Below, one piece after another: positions 24,302-31,804 of a stretch of 64,000 nt of DNA (within the stretch, counting starts at the first letter, position 1; each line of letters begins with the position of its first letter). Location of the stretch: assembly GCA_028710485.1 (NCBI GenBank), contig JAQTTZ010000004.1, positions 1-64,000 of the forward strand. Reading direction: 5' to 3'. The translations under genes were made by a program, and so were the position numbers. The notes under the pieces are model-generated. The model made no database searches, was not told the origin of the DNA, and was given only the letters and a program-made list of their open reading frames with translations. The DNA comes from Bacteriovorax sp. Its GTDB lineage: Bacteria > Bdellovibrionota > Bacteriovoracia > Bacteriovoracales > Bacteriovoracaceae.

Positions 24302-27300
24302 ATGTTGAAAATATTAATTCTTATCGCTTTATCTTTTAACATCGCTTTTGCGAAATCAAGATTTACAGATTCCGATAAGAAAAAGTTTATGGAAGAAGTG
24401 AAGCAAGGGATTGCTACTCATAAGCTTGAAAATAAGGGCAAGGTCGACCTCCAAATTATTAAGCCAGGTCTTTATGAAGAACTGGATATTTATTACAATC
24501 AAGAAAAGTTCACTCGTGAAGAGATGGTAAAACTTAAACAAAAATATGAAGAGTTTTCTAAGTCTGGAATAGCGCCGGAAAAAACAGAAGAAGAATTTTA
24601 TAAATTTGTGAATACTCAACTTGAGGAAATCAACAGAACACAAGTCGCAAAAGTTAAAGAAGGAAATGTTTGTAACAACTGGAGTTGCGAGGAAGGATTA
24701 AGGTGTGCCCTGGATCCCAAACAAGAAGATGGGAAATTATGCAAAAGGGGAGGAAGAGAATGTAAGGATAATGGAGACTGCTGTTCTTCGTCTTGCACAC
24801 TCATTAAAAAATTAAACAAAAGATTTTGTGTTGAAGTGAATAGATGCTTTAGACCTCTTAATCTTGGTATGTCGTGTATATTGAATCCCGTTTGCGGAGA
24901 AGGCGAATGCTTAGCATTTAATTCTAAAACTTCAGGAGTAGGAGAGTGCAAGGACAAAAACAAGTCGTGTAAAAAGAATTCAGACTGCTGTTCAAATTCA
25001 TGCAATAGCAACAAATGTATTGAGGCTTATGTTTGTAAAGACTGTATGATAAATGGGAAGAGGCCATCGCGAGGACAAAAATGTTGTGAAGGGCTTTATT
25101 TAAATGACAAAGGCATGTGTGTTCCGGATGCACCTCCCTTTGTTATTCCGCAAGTTAAGATAAAATTAATTCAGAAGTTTTTCATTACTTTGGGTTCAGT
25201 CTTTATTCCGTTTGCTAATGCGGATGAAGCATATGACATAGTTAAGGGTAATGGTGACAAGTATTCAAATTTCAAAGCGGTGTCGATTGATGCAGATATA
25301 GTCCAGGTTAAAAAACCAGAAATAACATTCAAAAGAAAATCAAATTTTAATACTTGCGATATTAGTTTTAGAGATGATTACTTGTTTTTTTTAAAGAACA
25401 ATAAATTTACAACTTCTGGTTGTGAGTATTCAGTTAATGACAAAGGCGTTTTCACCTTTGTCGACACAAACTGTTCGCAGCAGGATACTGGAAAAGCCGA
25501 TCCATCATTATTCGACATGGAATTGGCCCTACTTTCTTTTGACTATATGTTGTTAGGGGACGAGGGGGTGAATGATTATTGGACAAAAAGTTCAAATCCA
25601 GAGTCTTCAATTTATGGGCGCCTAAAAGCTGTAGCAACAAAACATCAACTAGTTCGCAACTCTACCAATGACAAAATTGATGCAAATAATATCAGGCTAA
25701 AATGTATGTGTCTCGATGTTATCGGGCATGACAATATCACAGATAAAGAGAAACAAAAATTCTTTGAAGGGTGTCCTGAATATCAAGTCGCACAAACAGG
25801 AGTCGTTTGTTCTAAGCAAGTTGCATGTGCTGTTGAGGATGGTTTTGCATGTGTTAAAGGTTTTATGCCTCAGAGTTGTAAGAGTGGGGAGGATGGTTGC
25901 ACTTGCACAGGTGGGAGTATTGATAACGTTACCGGCGAAACAGCTTCCGGAATTAAAGGAAAACGGCTTCTGGTTAATTGGACAAAAAATCTTACTTCAT
26001 TTAATGCTTCACTTGCGATCGACAACACCGAGGCTTACAAGGGAGTTGCTGAAGTTTCGACCTGGGCCGCGAACGACGCTAAATGGAATGACGTTGAAAA
26101 CAGAAAATACGATCTTTTTAATTTTAGTATCAAAAATTCAAGTGGAAGTGTTGCTGCCATGGGGGCCATCCTTGGCGCATTGTTGGCAGCTGGAGTAATT
26201 GCAGTATTAGGAGGATTTGCTTCAACTTCTATCTTGACTGCATGGGCGGCAGCCGGAATTATTGCGACCTCCTCTGTAACTGGTGGAACTGGTCTTTGGT
26301 TGATTGCTTCGCTTAAAGGAGCATGGATTTCAAAACGTCCGGAAGTTTTTGATAGATATATTAGAACTTACGGTTGTGGGAAAAAAGAAACTTGTGTGGA
26401 GTACAGCCGCGAATTGAACCAGCCGTATAATAATATTTGTAACGTTCATACTTCTGCCAATGCTTGTGTAAAAAACTTTGTGGTTTACTACGAAGATACG
26501 GAACCTCGTTATTTAGTTGATCCATGGATTCCCAAAGGCGTTTCAAAATCTTTGATCTTTCGAGACTTAAGTGGTGGTAGAACTTACGCCGAAAAAATGG
26601 AAGATGGATTTCAGGCTGCCAAATCTAATATGATTGCTAAAAATCCAGGTGGAGAATTTGTAGCCGAAGATTATATGCGCACTCTTTTTGTGGATGCAAA
26701 TGTTCTAGGTCAATACACTCCTCAAATTGGTTTGGATGATAAACGTTATAATCTCGATGCAACAATTATCGACGAGATAAAATCTAAAGCGAAGAAGTAC
26801 GCGATTGACCAAAAATTCTTTCTAGAAGGCGATACCGAGAATTTAAACAATTTTGCAGACTATACTTATGAATATCATTTCAAATGGCCTAAAACTTCAA
26901 GACAAAAAGAAATTAGTTATCCAACAGTCGGTTTAACGACCTATCTGGATCTAATGGCAAACGGAGTTACAGCAAACATGGCAGCAGGTTCAAGCAATGC
27001 TGCTAAAACTTTTGGTAATTTAAATGCTCAATACCTTCAAGATTATTTAAACACTCTTCATTTGTACAGTGATCTGCCAATCAATCAATCCGATGCGACC
27101 AAGCTTAAATTGATTAACGATGAGATTAATAAGACACAGACAGAGCTTGATAATCAAAAAGTTTTAAATGCTCTCGCTAATAATATAAACCTAGATAGTC
27201 AGTTGATGAATCTGAACCCCAGTGTTATTGATTCAACTGCCAAGTCGGTTGGCGCAAAAGGTGATGTCTCTTTATCAACAGATCAAAAGGCCTTCTTGAA

Positions 27301-27898
27301 TGCCATCGGAACACTCCGAACTGCTAGAAAAACTCAATTGAAAAAACTTGAGGCTTACAATAAGTCCATGGCAACAGGTGGAAATAGTGAGCGCGCAATT
27401 AAGATTGCGTCTGCTTCAAAAAATTTCGCTTCAAGCTTCGCTCGCCCTCTTTCAGGGTCATCTTCTAAAGGAAGCGGAAGCATCTTTGGTTCTGGTGGAA
27501 CAGATGGATTAATGTCTAGTGATAAGAATAAATCAGACTCTTCTAAAAATAATTCGAACTTTGAGGGCGGAAACTATAATACTTTTGGCTTGGGATCGGG
27601 TTCAGGTTCAGGTTCAGGGGCGGGATCTGGGTCAGGTGGTTCTTCTTCTGCGGGGATTGGTAAAACGGGGACTGATAATAAAAATGCAACTGCCGTAGAC
27701 AATGCCGGAAATGGCGTGAGTGATGAAGACAGCCGTAGATTAGCCGAGGCCATTGAAGCTCGCAACAAGTCAAATAAAGACAAATATCAATCTAAAGAAG
27801 AACAGTCTATTTTTGAAAAAGTAACAAATGCTTATATCAGAAATTACGACAAAGTTTTAAGCAAGAAGAAAGACAAGGATGTTATTGAACAAAAGTAA
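24302..27898 (+). CDS. large secreted Cys-rich protein with Gly/Ser-rich tail
   Basis: No known family is recognised. I start it at ATG 24302 (GAGG 6 bases upstream), which gives a clear signal peptide ending NIAFA and a 1198-residue product. The N-terminal third has a Cys-dense block of about 140 residues with two copies of a CxxNxDCCSxSC knot (CKDNGDCCSSSC and CKKNSDCCSNSC). A long hydrophobic Ala/Gly block near residue 630-680 could span a membrane. A helical region follows, and the end is Gly/Ser-rich (repeats of GSGSG) then charged. It is the first gene of an overlapping operon with a membrane acyltransferase-like protein and two polyamine-type enzymes, so it may be their target or surface partner (inference). 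Confidence 0.8.
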   Translation: MLKILILIALSFNIAFAKSRFTDSDKKKFMEEVKQGIATHKLENKGKVDLQIIKPGLYEELDIYYNQEKFTREEMVKLKQKYEEFSKSGIAPEKTEEEFYKFVNTQLEEINRTQVAKVKEGNVCNNWSCEEGLRCALDPKQEDGKLCKRGGRECKDNGDCCSSSCTLIKKLNKRFCVEVNRCFRPLNLGMSCILNPVCGEGECLAFNSKTSGVGECKDKNKSCKKNSDCCSNSCNSNKCIEAYVCKDCMINGKRPSRGQKCCEGLYLNDKGMCVPDAPPFVIPQVKIKLIQKFFITLGSVFIPFANADEAYDIVKGNGDKYSNFKAVSIDADIVQVKKPEITFKRKSNFNTCDISFRDDYLFFLKNNKFTTSGCEYSVNDKGVFTFVDTNCSQQDTGKADPSLFDMELALLSFDYMLLGDEGVNDYWTKSSNPESSIYGRLKAVATKHQLVRNSTNDKIDANNIRLKCMCLDVIGHDNITDKEKQKFFEGCPEYQVAQTGVVCSKQVACAVEDGFACVKGFMPQSCKSGEDGCTCTGGSIDNVTGETASGIKGKRLLVNWTKNLTSFNASLAIDNTEAYKGVAEVSTWAANDAKWNDVENRKYDLFNFSIKNSSGSVAAMGAILGALLAAGVIAVLGGFASTSILTAWAAAGIIATSSVTGGTGLWLIASLKGAWISKRPEVFDRYIRTYGCGKKETCVEYSRELNQPYNNICNVHTSANACVKNFVVYYEDTEPRYLVDPWIPKGVSKSLIFRDLSGGRTYAEKMEDGFQAAKSNMIAKNPGGEFVAEDYMRTLFVDANVLGQYTPQIGLDDKRYNLDATIIDEIKSKAKKYAIDQKFFLEGDTENLNNFADYTYEYHFKWPKTSRQKEISYPTVGLTTYLDLMANGVTANMAAGSSNAAKTFGNLNAQYLQDYLNTLHLYSDLPINQSDATKLKLINDEINKTQTELDNQKVLNALANNINLDSQLMNLNPSVIDSTAKSVGAKGDVSLSTDQKAFLNAIGTLRTARKTQLKKLEAYNKSMATGGNSERAIKIASASKNFASSFARPLSGSSSKGSGSIFGSGGTDGLMSSDKNKSDSSKNNSNFEGGNYNTFGLGSGSGSGSGAGSGSGGSSSAGIGKTGTDNKNATAVDNAGNGVSDEDSRRLAEAIEARNKSNKDKYQSKEEQSIFEKVTNAYIRNYDKVLSKKKDKDVIEQK

Positions 27899-29009
27899 AG
27901 ACGAGGACGTAACGTCGACAAGGATTGTTAACTTAGATTTCTTGCGCGGTTTGTTTATTATCTTCGCACTGGATGAACACTTCACGTACTACATTAACAT
28001 GTGGTATGTGGAATATTTTAGAGATGCTATTGCTCTAACTTCAACATATAAAATTCATTTCCCCATGATTGGGCAACAGATTGCAACAGATCATTTTAAT
28101 TATATGTTAGGTGTTGTTTTTATTCCTTGGGTCAGTCAAGTCTATCTAACATTGGCTTCCTTTAACTTAGCTAAAAAGTCTCAATATATCTTCAAAGAAG
28201 AACTTGGCCCGAAACTAAAGATCTTTGGTTTGATCTATCTTTTTTTTCTTATGGAAAATTTTATTGTGGCTCCAAACTTGGGACAGGCCATTTCATTTTA
28301 TCCAATAATGCTCTGGATGATCATCATGAGTCTCTTGTCGATTGTTTATAGCTTTGTTGGAGTAAGAGGGGTTTTGGTATTAACCATAATTTCGCTTTTT
28401 CGCTGGATTCTTCCTGTTGATTTGATTTCAAATCTGTTTCAGAGTTTTATCATTTATAATATTCATTCTGGATTTGAGTATGATGCACGAATTGAATATT
28501 TTTTCACATCAGGTTGTCTCGGTTTTCTGATGGGATATGTTCATTACCACAAACCCAATCTAAGACATCTTAAAGATATTTATTTTATCTTGATGGGGAT
28601 CGTGTTGGTCGCTTTTTACCTGGCTTACGGCGAGCCTTTGGTTCAAGATCCCGCCAATGCTTTTGCCCATGAACATGACCTGGCTCGAAATTTTAGTGGA
28701 ACACTTTATATCCTTGGGATTCAAGCAATAGTTATTTCTAGCTTTTTATGGCTTGAGAAAAAATCAATTCGTTTCAAAATTCCAATTGTTAATTGGGTTG
28801 GATTCAATTCAATACTTATTTTTGCTTTTCATCGCATATTTTTTGTTCGCATTCTTGCGCCCCTAAGCGTGCTATTTGGAAGTTTGTATGGCCGAACGTT
28901 AGGTGCCTCAACTCTAGAGATGTATATCTATGTCGGCATAACGATTGCTGTTTGCTATTTTATTAAAACCTCTAGGGTGGGGGATATTATTCTCCAAAGA
29001 AAAGGATAA
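27879..29009 (+). CDS. multipass acyltransferase-like membrane protein
   Basis: It has about ten membrane helices. The N-terminal NLDFLRGLFIIFALDEH resembles the opening of acyltransferase-3/DUF1624 (OpgC-like) proteins, in which 'LDxLRG' and a nearby acidic/His pair begin helix 1. A late NSILIFAFHR helix also fits. Such enzymes move acyl groups across the inner membrane onto sugars or polymers. The start overlaps the upstream gene by 20 bases and the next gene begins 9 bases downstream, so it is operonic. The acceptor is unknown, and the assignment is by pattern only. Confidence 0.65.
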   Translation: MLLNKSKDEDVTSTRIVNLDFLRGLFIIFALDEHFTYYINMWYVEYFRDAIALTSTYKIHFPMIGQQIATDHFNYMLGVVFIPWVSQVYLTLASFNLAKKSQYIFKEELGPKLKIFGLIYLFFLMENFIVAPNLGQAISFYPIMLWMIIMSLLSIVYSFVGVRGVLVLTIISLFRWILPVDLISNLFQSFIIYNIHSGFEYDARIEYFFTSGCLGFLMGYVHYHKPNLRHLKDIYFILMGIVLVAFYLAYGEPLVQDPANAFAHEHDLARNFSGTLYILGIQAIVISSFLWLEKKSIRFKIPIVNWVGFNSILIFAFHRIFFVRILAPLSVLFGSLYGRTLGASTLEMYIYVGITIAVCYFIKTSRVGDIILQRKG

Positions 29010-29018
29010 AGGATCATT

Positions 29019-30089
29019 ATGGACACGAGGTCCCAACATTTAATTTTCGATGCTGTTTGTGAAAGAGATTTCACGGATGCTGATATAGATGGCATAAAAG
29101 CAGTTATTGAAAAAGAATTAACGGTCATCAAAAAAGTAGAGCATAAGTTTACTCCACATGGAGAAACAACTGTCTTTATTCTATCAGAGTCCCATTTTGC
29201 GATTCATACCTATCCAGAAAACAGATACCTCTCAATGGATATCTATGTTTGTAATTTAGAAACGAATCTCGGAAAGATCCTGGACGAAATTAAGGGTATC
29301 ATTCCATTTGAAAAAACAGACTCACGAATCTTACTAAGAGGAAAAATTGGGCATAGAGAAGACGACCGCAATTTGAATATGGTTTACTTCTTAACCATCA
29401 TTGTCGCTTGTTGCAGTATTCTCTATGAATTTCTTTTGGCCCAATCCATCTCGACTACCATGGGAAATACAGCTCTCCGCTATAATCTCACCATTGGTTT
29501 ATTTATTGCTTCAATGGGCTTTGGAGCCTTGCTTTATAAAAAGTTTATTTCCAAAGAGTATTTCAAAGAGTTTATTAAAGTTGAACTTCTTCTCTCTCTC
29601 GTCGGGGGAGTTGCTCCGATTTTAGTATTAATAATAGACTATCTTTTCAATATGTTTGCCAGAACTAGCGGCGTCTCTTTTTTTTCATCGTGGGTGCAAA
29701 CTCCGCTCTTCACAATGAACCATCTTTTAATTGTGGCCATTGGTTTTTTATCTGGTTTAGAGCTTCCCCTTCTAATGGATATGAGTCGGCAATTTAAAAT
29801 CACCAAAGGGCATTTTGTTTTAGCTTATGATTATTTGGGAACTTTAATTGGAGCAATCCTTTTTCCTATCGCCATTTTGCCAAGCCTTCATATTTTTACA
29901 ATTGGCTATGTGGTCTCATTGATTAATATCTTGGTCGCTCTTTTTGTCATGATCAAAATGAAGATCGAAAATAAAAGATATAAGTTTATTATTTGGGTAA
30001 TGCTGGTCATTTGGATTTTACTGATCGTAAACTCGAATACTGTTAACCAGTTAATCATTGAAAAATTTTATTTTGGTGGGAAATTTTAA
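29019..30089 (+). CDS. S-adenosylmethionine decarboxylase fused to a membrane domain
   Basis: Residues 1-115 are a complete class 1B (SpeD/SpeH) pyruvoyl decarboxylase. The self-cleavage Ser58 lies in SESHFAIHTYPE, with His63 and Cys78 (IYVC). These match Ser63, His68 and Cys83 of the Thermotoga enzyme in kind and exact spacing. From about residue 118 it continues into 7 or so membrane helices homologous to the membrane domain of the next gene (both share 'S(I)xYExLL' and 'LSGxExPLxM' and 'YLGTLxG' landmarks). It should make decarboxylated SAM at the membrane. SpeD homologues have also turned into arginine or ornithine decarboxylases, so substrate is not certain. The stop overlaps the next ATG by one base. 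Confidence 0.85.
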   Translation: MDTRSQHLIFDAVCERDFTDADIDGIKAVIEKELTVIKKVEHKFTPHGETTVFILSESHFAIHTYPENRYLSMDIYVCNLETNLGKILDEIKGIIPFEKTDSRILLRGKIGHREDDRNLNMVYFLTIIVACCSILYEFLLAQSISTTMGNTALRYNLTIGLFIASMGFGALLYKKFISKEYFKEFIKVELLLSLVGGVAPILVLIIDYLFNMFARTSGVSFFSSWVQTPLFTMNHLLIVAIGFLSGLELPLLMDMSRQFKITKGHFVLAYDYLGTLIGAILFPIAILPSLHIFTIGYVVSLINILVALFVMIKMKIENKRYKFIIWVMLVIWILLIVNSNTVNQLIIEKFYFGGKF

Positions 30090-31804
30090 TGAATGCCAGG
30101 AATTTTATAAAACTAGAGCTTCTCCTAATCACTTCGATTCTTGCTTTTTGTAGCATCGTTTACGAGTTGCTGCTTTCTAATACCTTGGCGATTGTTACTG
30201 GAAATTATATCTGGTGGCAGTCCCTAACTATTGGCGTTTATATCGGAGGGTTGGGACTCGGTGCCTATTACTCTGATCGCTTGAAAAATACTTATAGAAG
30301 TTTAATTAATATAGAGTTAGGTCTTTCTTTTTTAGGGGCCATTTGTGTTGTTTATGTTTATCTTTTTCATGGGACTTATAAATACATAGATAATCTTTTC
30401 TTTTATACGGGGGACTTCTATTCTTCGTTCTATCTGCAAAATATATTTCTTTTAAAAATAGTTTTTTTTATTGCCATTCAAGGACTGACTCTATCAATAG
30501 GCTTGTTGTCGGGGTTTGAAATTCCCTTAATGATGAGAATTGCCGAAGAACATCTCGGTCATTCAGAAGAGGGGGAGCATCAGATCTTGGGTATCAATTA
30601 TCTTGGAACTCTGGTTGGGACTATTTGTTTTGCTTATTTCCTCCTTCCAAAGCTTGATGTTATAAAAACGTCTGTAGTGGTCGCTCTTTTAAATTTATTA
30701 GTTTGTGTTTATTGCCTGGTGAAGTTCGCAAAGTTCAAACGAAGTGTCTATACTGGGTTCATCGCTGCCCTTCTTGTTATGATTTCCATAATTGGGATAA
30801 GTGAACAAAGTATTACTCAAAGGTATTTGAAATTTTTTTATTATCTACCCAAGATTCTCTCTCAGAATAACACTGACCTTGATGACCTCATTAGAAGAGT
30901 GGACAATTTTAAGCCAATTGAGCGCTCAAAATCACTTTATCAGTATGTAGATATTTTTTCTTATCCAACTACCGAAGACAATAAAGTCGTAGAGTCAACG
31001 ATCCTGACTCTCGATACCAATTTTCAATTTAATACCAGCACTGAGTTTTATTATCACCAGGCATTTGCTCACGTTTCAATCATTATGAACAAGAAGGTTC
31101 CTAAAAAGATTTTACTTTTAGGTGGAGGCGATGGATTACTTCTGCGCGAACTACTAAAATATAAAGAGATTGAGTCCATTAAGCATATAGAGCTCGATCA
31201 GAAAATGATTGAGCTGGCCAAGACTCGCTTTGCTGAATTAAATAAGCACTCACTCGATGATCCGCGTGTTCACTCCGAAATTAATGATGGTTTTTATTAT
31301 GTCCGGAATACTACTGATAAGTACGATGCCATTTTTATTGATTTTCCTTATCCTAACTCTTACGATCTGGCCCGCTTGTACAGCTTGGAGTTTTATACCT
31401 ATGTGAGAAGAACACTCAACCCCGGCGGTTTTGTGGTCTTAGATGCACCTTTCTATAACAAGGAAGACTACACTAAGAATAAGTATCAAGGACGTGCTGT
31501 TCTCACTCAAGTTTTTAACGATCGCCATGTGATTAGCAATAGTGTCGTGGCCAGCACCTTTTATTATGCAGGATTTAAATCCTTTTTCCCGTACCGTGTT
31601 TCTGATGAATCCTTTTTATTTTTAAAAGTTGAGCCGGGAGCTATTGATTATAATTTTATGGATAGTGCGGATTTATCAAAGTTAGAACCGCAAACAATTC
31701 GTGAGATGAAAGAAATTAAGAATCAAGAGTTTCCGTACACCATTGCTTTAAAGTACGTGAATTCAATTTTTAAGCCGACTGTAATGAAGAAAAACGAGTT
31801 CTAA
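30089..31804 (+). CDS. membrane-anchored spermidine-synthase-like protein (COG4262 type)
   Basis: The N-terminal 7-helix membrane domain is paralogous to that of the preceding gene. The C-terminal Rossmann aminopropyltransferase domain has GGGDG at 345-349 and acidic HIELD ending the next strand. Typical enzymes have a 'DE..YHE' gate and 'D..DP' catalytic loop. Here these read TEFYYHQ and DFPYP, so two acidic groups thought to handle the amine are changed. It may use an unusual acceptor or have lost classic spermidine synthase activity. It is coupled by TAATG to the decarboxylase gene, which would supply its aminopropyl donor. Confidence 0.85.
   Translation: MNARNFIKLELLLITSILAFCSIVYELLLSNTLAIVTGNYIWWQSLTIGVYIGGLGLGAYYSDRLKNTYRSLINIELGLSFLGAICVVYVYLFHGTYKYIDNLFFYTGDFYSSFYLQNIFLLKIVFFIAIQGLTLSIGLLSGFEIPLMMRIAEEHLGHSEEGEHQILGINYLGTLVGTICFAYFLLPKLDVIKTSVVVALLNLLVCVYCLVKFAKFKRSVYTGFIAALLVMISIIGISEQSITQRYLKFFYYLPKILSQNNTDLDDLIRRVDNFKPIERSKSLYQYVDIFSYPTTEDNKVVESTILTLDTNFQFNTSTEFYYHQAFAHVSIIMNKKVPKKILLLGGGDGLLLRELLKYKEIESIKHIELDQKMIELAKTRFAELNKHSLDDPRVHSEINDGFYYVRNTTDKYDAIFIDFPYPNSYDLARLYSLEFYTYVRRTLNPGGFVVLDAPFYNKEDYTKNKYQGRAVLTQVFNDRHVISNSVVASTFYYAGFKSFFPYRVSDESFLFLKVEPGAIDYNFMDSADLSKLEPQTIREMKEIKNQEFPYTIALKYVNSIFKPTVMKKNEF

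What the first reader, a model, noticed from the sequence alone, without database searches (positions are those of the whole stretch)
24302..31804. Membrane-tethered polyamine-type pathway in one operon with a giant secreted Cys-rich protein
Four tightly spaced or overlapping genes encode a 1198-residue secreted Cys-knot/Gly-Ser protein, an acyltransferase-like membrane protein, an AdoMet decarboxylase fused to a 7-helix membrane domain, and an aminopropyltransferase carrying a homologous membrane domain. Donor production and transfer would sit side by side in the membrane, perhaps as a heteromer. This suggests aminopropyl modification of an envelope or secreted product rather than ordinary cytosolic spermidine. 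I know of polyamine-linked modification clusters with membrane SpeE and SpeD, but not of this combination.
Basis: partly seen in the sequence, partly recalled or inferred. Interest (0 to 1): 0.78.

Follow-up and report, generated by a model that had tools for sequence, protein, structure and literature searches.

The report
Predicted transmembrane aminopropyl-transfer operon
In this predatory-type bacterium (Bacteriovoracaceae), four co-inherited genes appear to encode a membrane machine that makes an aminopropyl donor inside the cell and uses it on the outer side of the inner membrane, probably to decorate an exported protein, which would be a new use of polyamine enzymes.

Summary
Four abutting genes encode a 1198-aa exported Cys-rich protein (SEC), a HGSNAT-like membrane acyltransferase (ACT), SpeD fused to seven helices (SPD), and a homologous seven-helix domain fused to SpeE (SPE). 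In the family, 17 full-length SPD fusions were found in 129 genomes. SEC lies just upstream in all 17 and ACT lies between in 16, although flanking genes differ outside the genus. The genome also has ordinary speD and speE elsewhere.

The SPD membrane half descends from a stand-alone partner gene paired with membrane SpeE across the phylum. Those pairs usually sit beside pilin-like genes. Two genomes carry pilin-partner-SPE-ACT operons with true ACT homologues. So the unit recurs: exported protein, paired membrane halves, aminopropyltransferase, membrane acyltransferase.

Four computed lines place the SpeE domain in the periplasm: positive-inside charge with seven helices, no cysteine in it, TM7 missing from the partner half in two natural fusions, and SpeD N-terminal while SpeE is C-terminal. 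Donor-site residues are kept, but the second Asp of DxxDP is Tyr.

Best model: SpeD makes dcAdoMet in the cytosol, the paired MFS-like halves pass it out, and periplasmic SpeE aminopropylates an exported acceptor. Donor export, acceptor and product are inferred. SEC relatives also occur without the enzymes.

The parts
24302..27898 (+). SEC: 1198-aa exported protein; signal peptide, Cys-rich knottin-like repeats, central hydrophobic hairpin, Ser/Gly-rich region; putative substrate
   Evidence: immediately upstream (with ACT between in 16) in 17/17 full-length fusion genomes; no Pfam/NCBIfam hit
27752..27895 (+). C-terminal tail of SEC (...SIFEKVTNAYIRNYDKVLSKKKDKD), a motif also ending other exported Bacteriovoracaceae proteins
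27879..29009 (+). ACT: 376-aa polytopic acyltransferase-like protein (HGSNAT/GWT1, TmAT-like fold)
   Evidence: AlphaFold pLDDT 85.6; Foldseek top 15 all HGSNAT or GWT1, best E 5e-3, probability 0.99-1.00, TM about 0.5; invariant H34, H318, E126
29019..29354 (+). SPD, SpeD domain (class 1b AdoMet decarboxylase); S58, H63, C78 match T. maritima S63, H68, C83
   Evidence: PF02675, PDB 1tlu/1vr7, residues kept in 15/15
29373..30053 (+). SPD, seven-helix partner domain, derived from a stand-alone partner gene
30110..30808 (+). SPE, seven-helix membrane domain (catalytic-side half), predicted N-in / C-out
30875..31801 (+). SPE, SpeE-like aminopropyltransferase domain, cysteine-free, predicted periplasmic
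   Evidence: PF01564; SpeE fold; Cys counts
31340..31354 (+). DFPYP motif (residues 418-422) in place of canonical DxxDP: catalytic Asp kept, second Asp replaced by Tyr

Best explanation
A transmembrane aminopropylation operon. The SpeD domain of SPD, on the cytosolic face, decarboxylates AdoMet. The partner membrane domain of SPD and the membrane domain of SPE pair in parallel, like the two halves of an MFS transporter, and pass dcAdoMet across the inner membrane. The SpeE-like domain of SPE, on the periplasmic side, transfers the aminopropyl group to an extracytoplasmic acceptor that is not putrescine, most likely the co-encoded exported protein SEC (pilin-like proteins in the related operons). 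ACT, an HGSNAT/TmAT-like acyltransferase, probably adds an acyl group to the same product, perhaps to the new amine. Shown by computation: the block and its conservation, fold assignments, the partner origin of the fusion, retained donor-site residues, altered acceptor motif. Predicted with fair support: SpeE domain outside. Inferred: pairing as a transporter, dcAdoMet export, acceptor identity, the role of ACT.
For: Block conservation. ACT occurs in 17/18 SPD genomes against 3/111 others, Fisher p 3e-17 without correction for relatedness. Related operons pilin-partner-SPE-ACT in two genomes, three operons (L121, L194, L195); pilin-like genes at 17 partner/SPE loci. Tree: partner side and SPE side separate (96/90, 95/96); SPD fusion one origin (99/97). 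Topology: K/R 10.7 in N-terminus and loops 2-3, 4-5, 6-7 against 1.2 in the other loops, 29/29 proteins. SpeE domain Cys: 0 in 15/15; pilin-type 0 in 14/18 and 2 in 4/18; cytosolic SpeE 2-5 in 30/30. In two A-B-SpeE fusions the A half keeps six helices (TM7 gone) before a B half with seven. HGSNAT-like ACT. DFPYP motif.
Against: No biochemistry. Residues just after TM7 carry about 3.4 K/R per 26 aa, which by the positive-inside rule would favour the cytosol, and the AlphaFold secondary structure merges TM5 and TM6 into one helix, so seven crossings are not proven. A simple topology predictor gave six helices and C-in for some members. SEC homologues without the enzymes are common. G292 keeps SEC without the enzymes, and G293 keeps partner+SPE without the SpeD domain.
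Confidence: 0.5

Rival explanations
1. The SpeE domain is cytosolic and the complex aminopropylates a lipid head group or another membrane-bound acceptor at the inner leaflet, as has been suggested for the PspA-linked 7TM-SpeE operons; SEC and ACT then use or export that product.
For: Homologous 7TM-SpeE in CesT/Tir-PspA operons with proposed membrane or aminopropylation roles (PMC11237479); positive residues after TM7; TM5/TM6 not resolved as two helices.
Against: Cys depletion of the SpeE domain and loss of TM7 in A-B fusions; recurrent linkage to exported proteins instead of PspA/DUF350.
Confidence: 0.22
2. The system makes and secretes a polyamine (spermidine-like or acylated) into the periplasm for surface protection, in the manner suggested for surface polyamines of Pseudomonas aeruginosa; SEC is a bystander or a binding protein.
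For: SpeD and SpeE domains keep donor-side catalytic residues; surface-associated polyamines dependent on SpeE2 are reported in P. aeruginosa (PMC11107197).
Against: The second acceptor-site Asp is replaced by an aromatic residue in all 15 window-type proteins; related operons encode pilins, not polyamine transporters; no ornithine or arginine decarboxylase in the block.
Confidence: 0.15
3. SPE is no longer an aminopropyltransferase: it acts as a SAM-binding methyltransferase or as a non-catalytic assembly factor for exported proteins, and the SpeD fusion is regulatory.
For: Weak methyltransferase-domain hits; acceptor motif changed; partner without SpeD in G293.
Against: SpeE fold, with top structural hits all aminopropyltransferases; donor-site residues invariant across 29 divergent members; fusion to an intact SpeD in 15/15.
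Confidence: 0.08

Closest known systems
MFS-like membrane domain + SpdSyn fusion with AdoMetDC (Li et al. 2019, Biochem J, doi 10.1042/BCJ20190561; COG4262/PRK03612)
   Same: Seven-helix domain fused to a SpeE-like domain, with an AdoMetDC partner and, as I recall from the abstract (paper not held), no spermidine made.
   Different: Here SpeD is fused to a second, duplicated membrane half; no DUF350 or PspA; acceptor motif DFPYP not DxxDP; operon with SEC and a HGSNAT-like protein.
CesT/Tir-PspA operons with 7TM spermidine-synthase fusions (PMC11237479)
   Same: Homologous 7TM-SpeE protein; an envelope role is proposed.
   Different: No PspA, CesT/Tir, DUF350 or DUF4178 gene in the block; PSP-type members in this phylum keep DFPDP and lack a partner gene beside them in the loci read.
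TmAT superfamily (HGSNAT, GWT1, AT3 proteins; PMC12423673, PMC11357348)
   Same: ACT fold match; same idea of using a cytosolic donor for an extracytosolic acceptor.
   Different: Fold similarity is modest (TM about 0.5, E 5e-3); no Pfam family hit; substrate unknown.
Silaffin-type polyamine-modified exported proteins of diatoms (from my own knowledge)
   Same: Exported Lys/Ser-rich protein carrying polyamine-type modification, an analogy for the proposed product.
   Different: No homology tested or claimed; modification here is not demonstrated.

Membership tests
PRK03612/COG4262-type membrane aminopropyltransferase | N-terminal multi-helix domain homologous to the family | tested here: met
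   NF002956 E 6e-83 for SPE and 9e-39 for the SPD membrane half, both far below the curated cut-off of 472 bits: distant member
PRK03612/COG4262-type membrane aminopropyltransferase | SpeE domain with dcAdoMet-site residues (YQ, YH, GGGDG, ELD, first Asp of DxxDP) | tested here: met
PRK03612/COG4262-type membrane aminopropyltransferase | second Asp of DxxDP (DLPDP/DFPDP) | tested here: not met
   DFPYP in 15/15 window-type proteins; DFPDP kept in the four PSP-type proteins
CesT/Tir-PspA 7TM-SpeE operon | PspA, CesT/Tir, DUF350 or DUF4178 neighbours | tested here: not met
   none among the block and the neighbouring genes scanned with Pfam
Spermidine synthase (SpeE equivalog) | passes an equivalog cut-off | tested here: not met
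   TIGR00417 118 of 249.6 bits; NF002010 140 of 260
AdoMet decarboxylase class 1b (SpeD) | pyruvoyl Ser, His and Cys of T. maritima S63/H68/C83 | tested here: met
   S58, H63, C78; kept in 15/15
AdoMet decarboxylase class 1b (SpeD) | uses AdoMet rather than ornithine or arginine | tested here: inconclusive
   ESH and PE retained but HTWPE is HTYPE; diagnostic residues of SpeDC were not mapped
TmAT/HGSNAT-like membrane acyltransferase | fold | tested here: met
   Foldseek top 15 all HGSNAT or GWT1, probability 0.99-1.00, TM about 0.5
TmAT/HGSNAT-like membrane acyltransferase | acyl-CoA-dependent transfer | not testable with these tools
   conserved H34, H318, E126 only
Extracytoplasmic aminopropyltransferase | SpeE domain outside | tested here: inconclusive
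   four computed lines agree, but no experiment; AlphaFold merges TM5/TM6

The most novel reading that the evidence does not exclude
A transmembrane aminopropylation machine: two MFS-like halves export dcAdoMet made by a cytosolic SpeD domain to a periplasmic SpeE-like enzyme that modifies exported proteins (SEC here, pilins in relatives), followed by acylation by a HGSNAT-like enzyme. I found no earlier description of an extracytoplasmic aminopropyltransferase in the held papers.
Probability: 0.42. Interest if true: 0.88.

Novelty: new variant of a known kind. Interest (0 to 1): 0.7.

Why it matters
Membrane-fused spermidine synthases that do not make spermidine have had no known acceptor. 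This block and its pilin-linked relatives name candidate acceptors (exported proteins), propose why a SpeE is fused to half a transporter (to use dcAdoMet outside), and add an acyltransferase that works by the same logic. If true it would be a new post-export protein modification, testable by topology fusions and proteomics.

Tried and rejected
The SEC C-terminal tail as an aminopropylation tag: rejected, since it also ends proteins in genomes without a membrane aminopropyltransferase. Homology of SEC to the pilin-like proteins: none found (hhalign P 0.08), despite a shared CGKK-type motif. ACT as a member of the acyltransferase-like cluster of other pilin loci: only weak profile similarity, although true ACT homologues occur in G032 and G309. 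SpeD neofunctionalised to ornithine or arginine decarboxylase: not excluded, judged unlikely. Pfam scan of pilin-locus neighbours: mostly no family. The key paper, Li 2019, is not held. Literature searches for a pilin-spermidine synthase link or a periplasmic aminopropyltransferase found nothing. The genome-contig scan found only three close relatives, so occurrence of the fusion outside the phylum is untested.

Full report
What is there. The window lies in a 4.3-Mb draft genome (G000, contig C166); close relatives are recorded as Bacteriovorax or Bacteriovoracaceae. SPD carries a class 1b AdoMet decarboxylase domain, then a membrane domain that matches the membrane half of PRK03612; SPE carries a homologous membrane domain, then a SpeE domain. 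The genome has a separate ordinary speD and speE, close together and divergent on contig C44, so the block is not needed for cytosolic spermidine.

Conservation. In the family, 17 full-length SPD fusions were found among 129 genomes, plus one partner without the SpeD domain in G293. SEC lies immediately upstream (with ACT between, or absent in one genome) in all 17, counting C-terminal fragments at two contig edges; ACT lies between in 16. Outside the genus the neighbours of the block differ, so the block is kept while its surroundings are not. ACT occurs in 17 of the 18 SPD genomes and in 3 of 111 others (Fisher p 3e-17, not corrected for relatedness). At the same genomic site, G170 has only a 906-aa protein with the SEC tail, G292 has SEC with the enzymes replaced by another gene, and G293 has partner+SPE without SpeD.

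Origin of the fusion. Across the phylum, membrane SpeE genes often sit next to a stand-alone 210-240-aa membrane gene. A tree of 72 membrane domains puts the stand-alone partners and the SPD halves on one side and the SpeE-linked halves on the other (support 96/90 and 95/96), and the SPD fusion arises once (99/97). A third, more divergent set of 10 rows (PSP-type and a few others) falls outside both. So SpeD was joined to an existing partner subunit.

Context of the relatives. Seventeen of these loci also encode pilin-like proteins with the prepilin N-terminus (cluster; Pfam N_methyl in most of the members scanned, some below the curated cut-off). In G032 and twice in G309 the order is pilin, partner, SPE, true ACT homologue. 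The common unit is therefore an exported protein, two membrane halves, a SpeE domain and a membrane acyltransferase. ACT itself folds like HGSNAT and GWT1 (pLDDT 85.6; Foldseek probability 0.99-1.00 for the top 15, TM about 0.5).

Topology. Positive charges lie in the N-terminus and loops 2-3, 4-5 and 6-7 (mean 10.7 K/R) and not in the other loops (1.2), in 29 of 29 SPE proteins. With seven helices the N-terminus is cytosolic and the C-terminus periplasmic. This fits SpeD at the N-terminus of SPD and puts the SpeE domain of SPE outside. The SpeE domain has no Cys in any of 15 window-type proteins, although their membrane domains do; pilin-type domains have 0 (14) or 2 (4); cytosolic SpeE has 2-5 in all 30 (p 2e-8 for pilin-type against cytosolic, not corrected for relatedness). 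In two single-chain fusions partner-SPE (L118, L053), the partner half keeps six helices and loses TM7 before a hydrophilic linker and a seven-helix SPE half, which is what parallel halves with outward C-termini require. Caveats: post-TM7 residues are moderately basic, some members were predicted with six helices, and the AlphaFold helix list merges TM5 and TM6.

Active sites. SpeD: S58, H63 and C78 correspond to T. maritima S63, H68 and C83 and are kept in 15/15. SpeE: Y284-Q285, Y322-H323, the G/D residues of GGGDG, D370 and D418 are invariant in 29 members, but the second Asp of DxxDP is Tyr. From my knowledge of SpeE structures, that Asp binds the distal amine of putrescine; its loss suggests a different acceptor.

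Mechanism. I propose that SpeD makes dcAdoMet at the cytosolic face, the paired MFS-like halves pass it across, and the periplasmic SpeE domain aminopropylates an exported acceptor, SEC being the best candidate; ACT then acylates, perhaps the new amine. Steps after the fold and topology predictions are inference. SEC homologues without the enzymes mean that any modification is a lineage feature of SEC, not its only business.

Novelty. The nearest known kind is the membrane-domain/SpdSyn fusion with AdoMetDC that has a polyamine-independent role (Li 2019, known to me from its abstract; cited in PMC11237479). New here: the partner duplication, the SpeD fusion, the exported-protein plus TmAT-like operon, and the prediction that catalysis is extracytoplasmic. 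I call it a new variant of a known kind.

Noticed in passing
window 27752-27895; L073-L088, L089-L102: A C-terminal motif (D-[ST]-[LI]-[FW]-x2-[VI]-[TS]-x-x-Y-x-R-N-x-[DE]-[KR], often followed by K/R) ends many otherwise different exported proteins of Bacteriovoracaceae, with several in some genomes; it may be a sorting or anchoring signal.
   Followed up: partly
L055:4147-5658 (also L057:1557-3317): A pilin-like protein near a partner/SPE pair has a C-terminal Hint/intein-type domain (Pfam E about 2e-5, below cut-off); a second large pilin-like protein ends in a similar HN motif, suggesting autoprocessing pilins.
   Followed up: no
L103:589-1578, L105:505-1488, L114:3689-4810, L115:3443-4555: A recurrent 330-370-aa polytopic protein with a D-x2-HVY-(x)-T-(x)-RTY motif accompanies membrane SpeE genes; no Pfam family.
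   Followed up: no
L111, L112, L113: In three genomes an ordinary speD lies divergent from the stand-alone partner gene, an arrangement consistent with the later SpeD-partner fusion.
   Followed up: partly
L168:1203-3616 (G293, same genus): At the same site as the window block the partner lacks the SpeD domain and a different acyltransferase-like gene replaces ACT; a natural comparison for the role of the SpeD fusion.
   Followed up: partly
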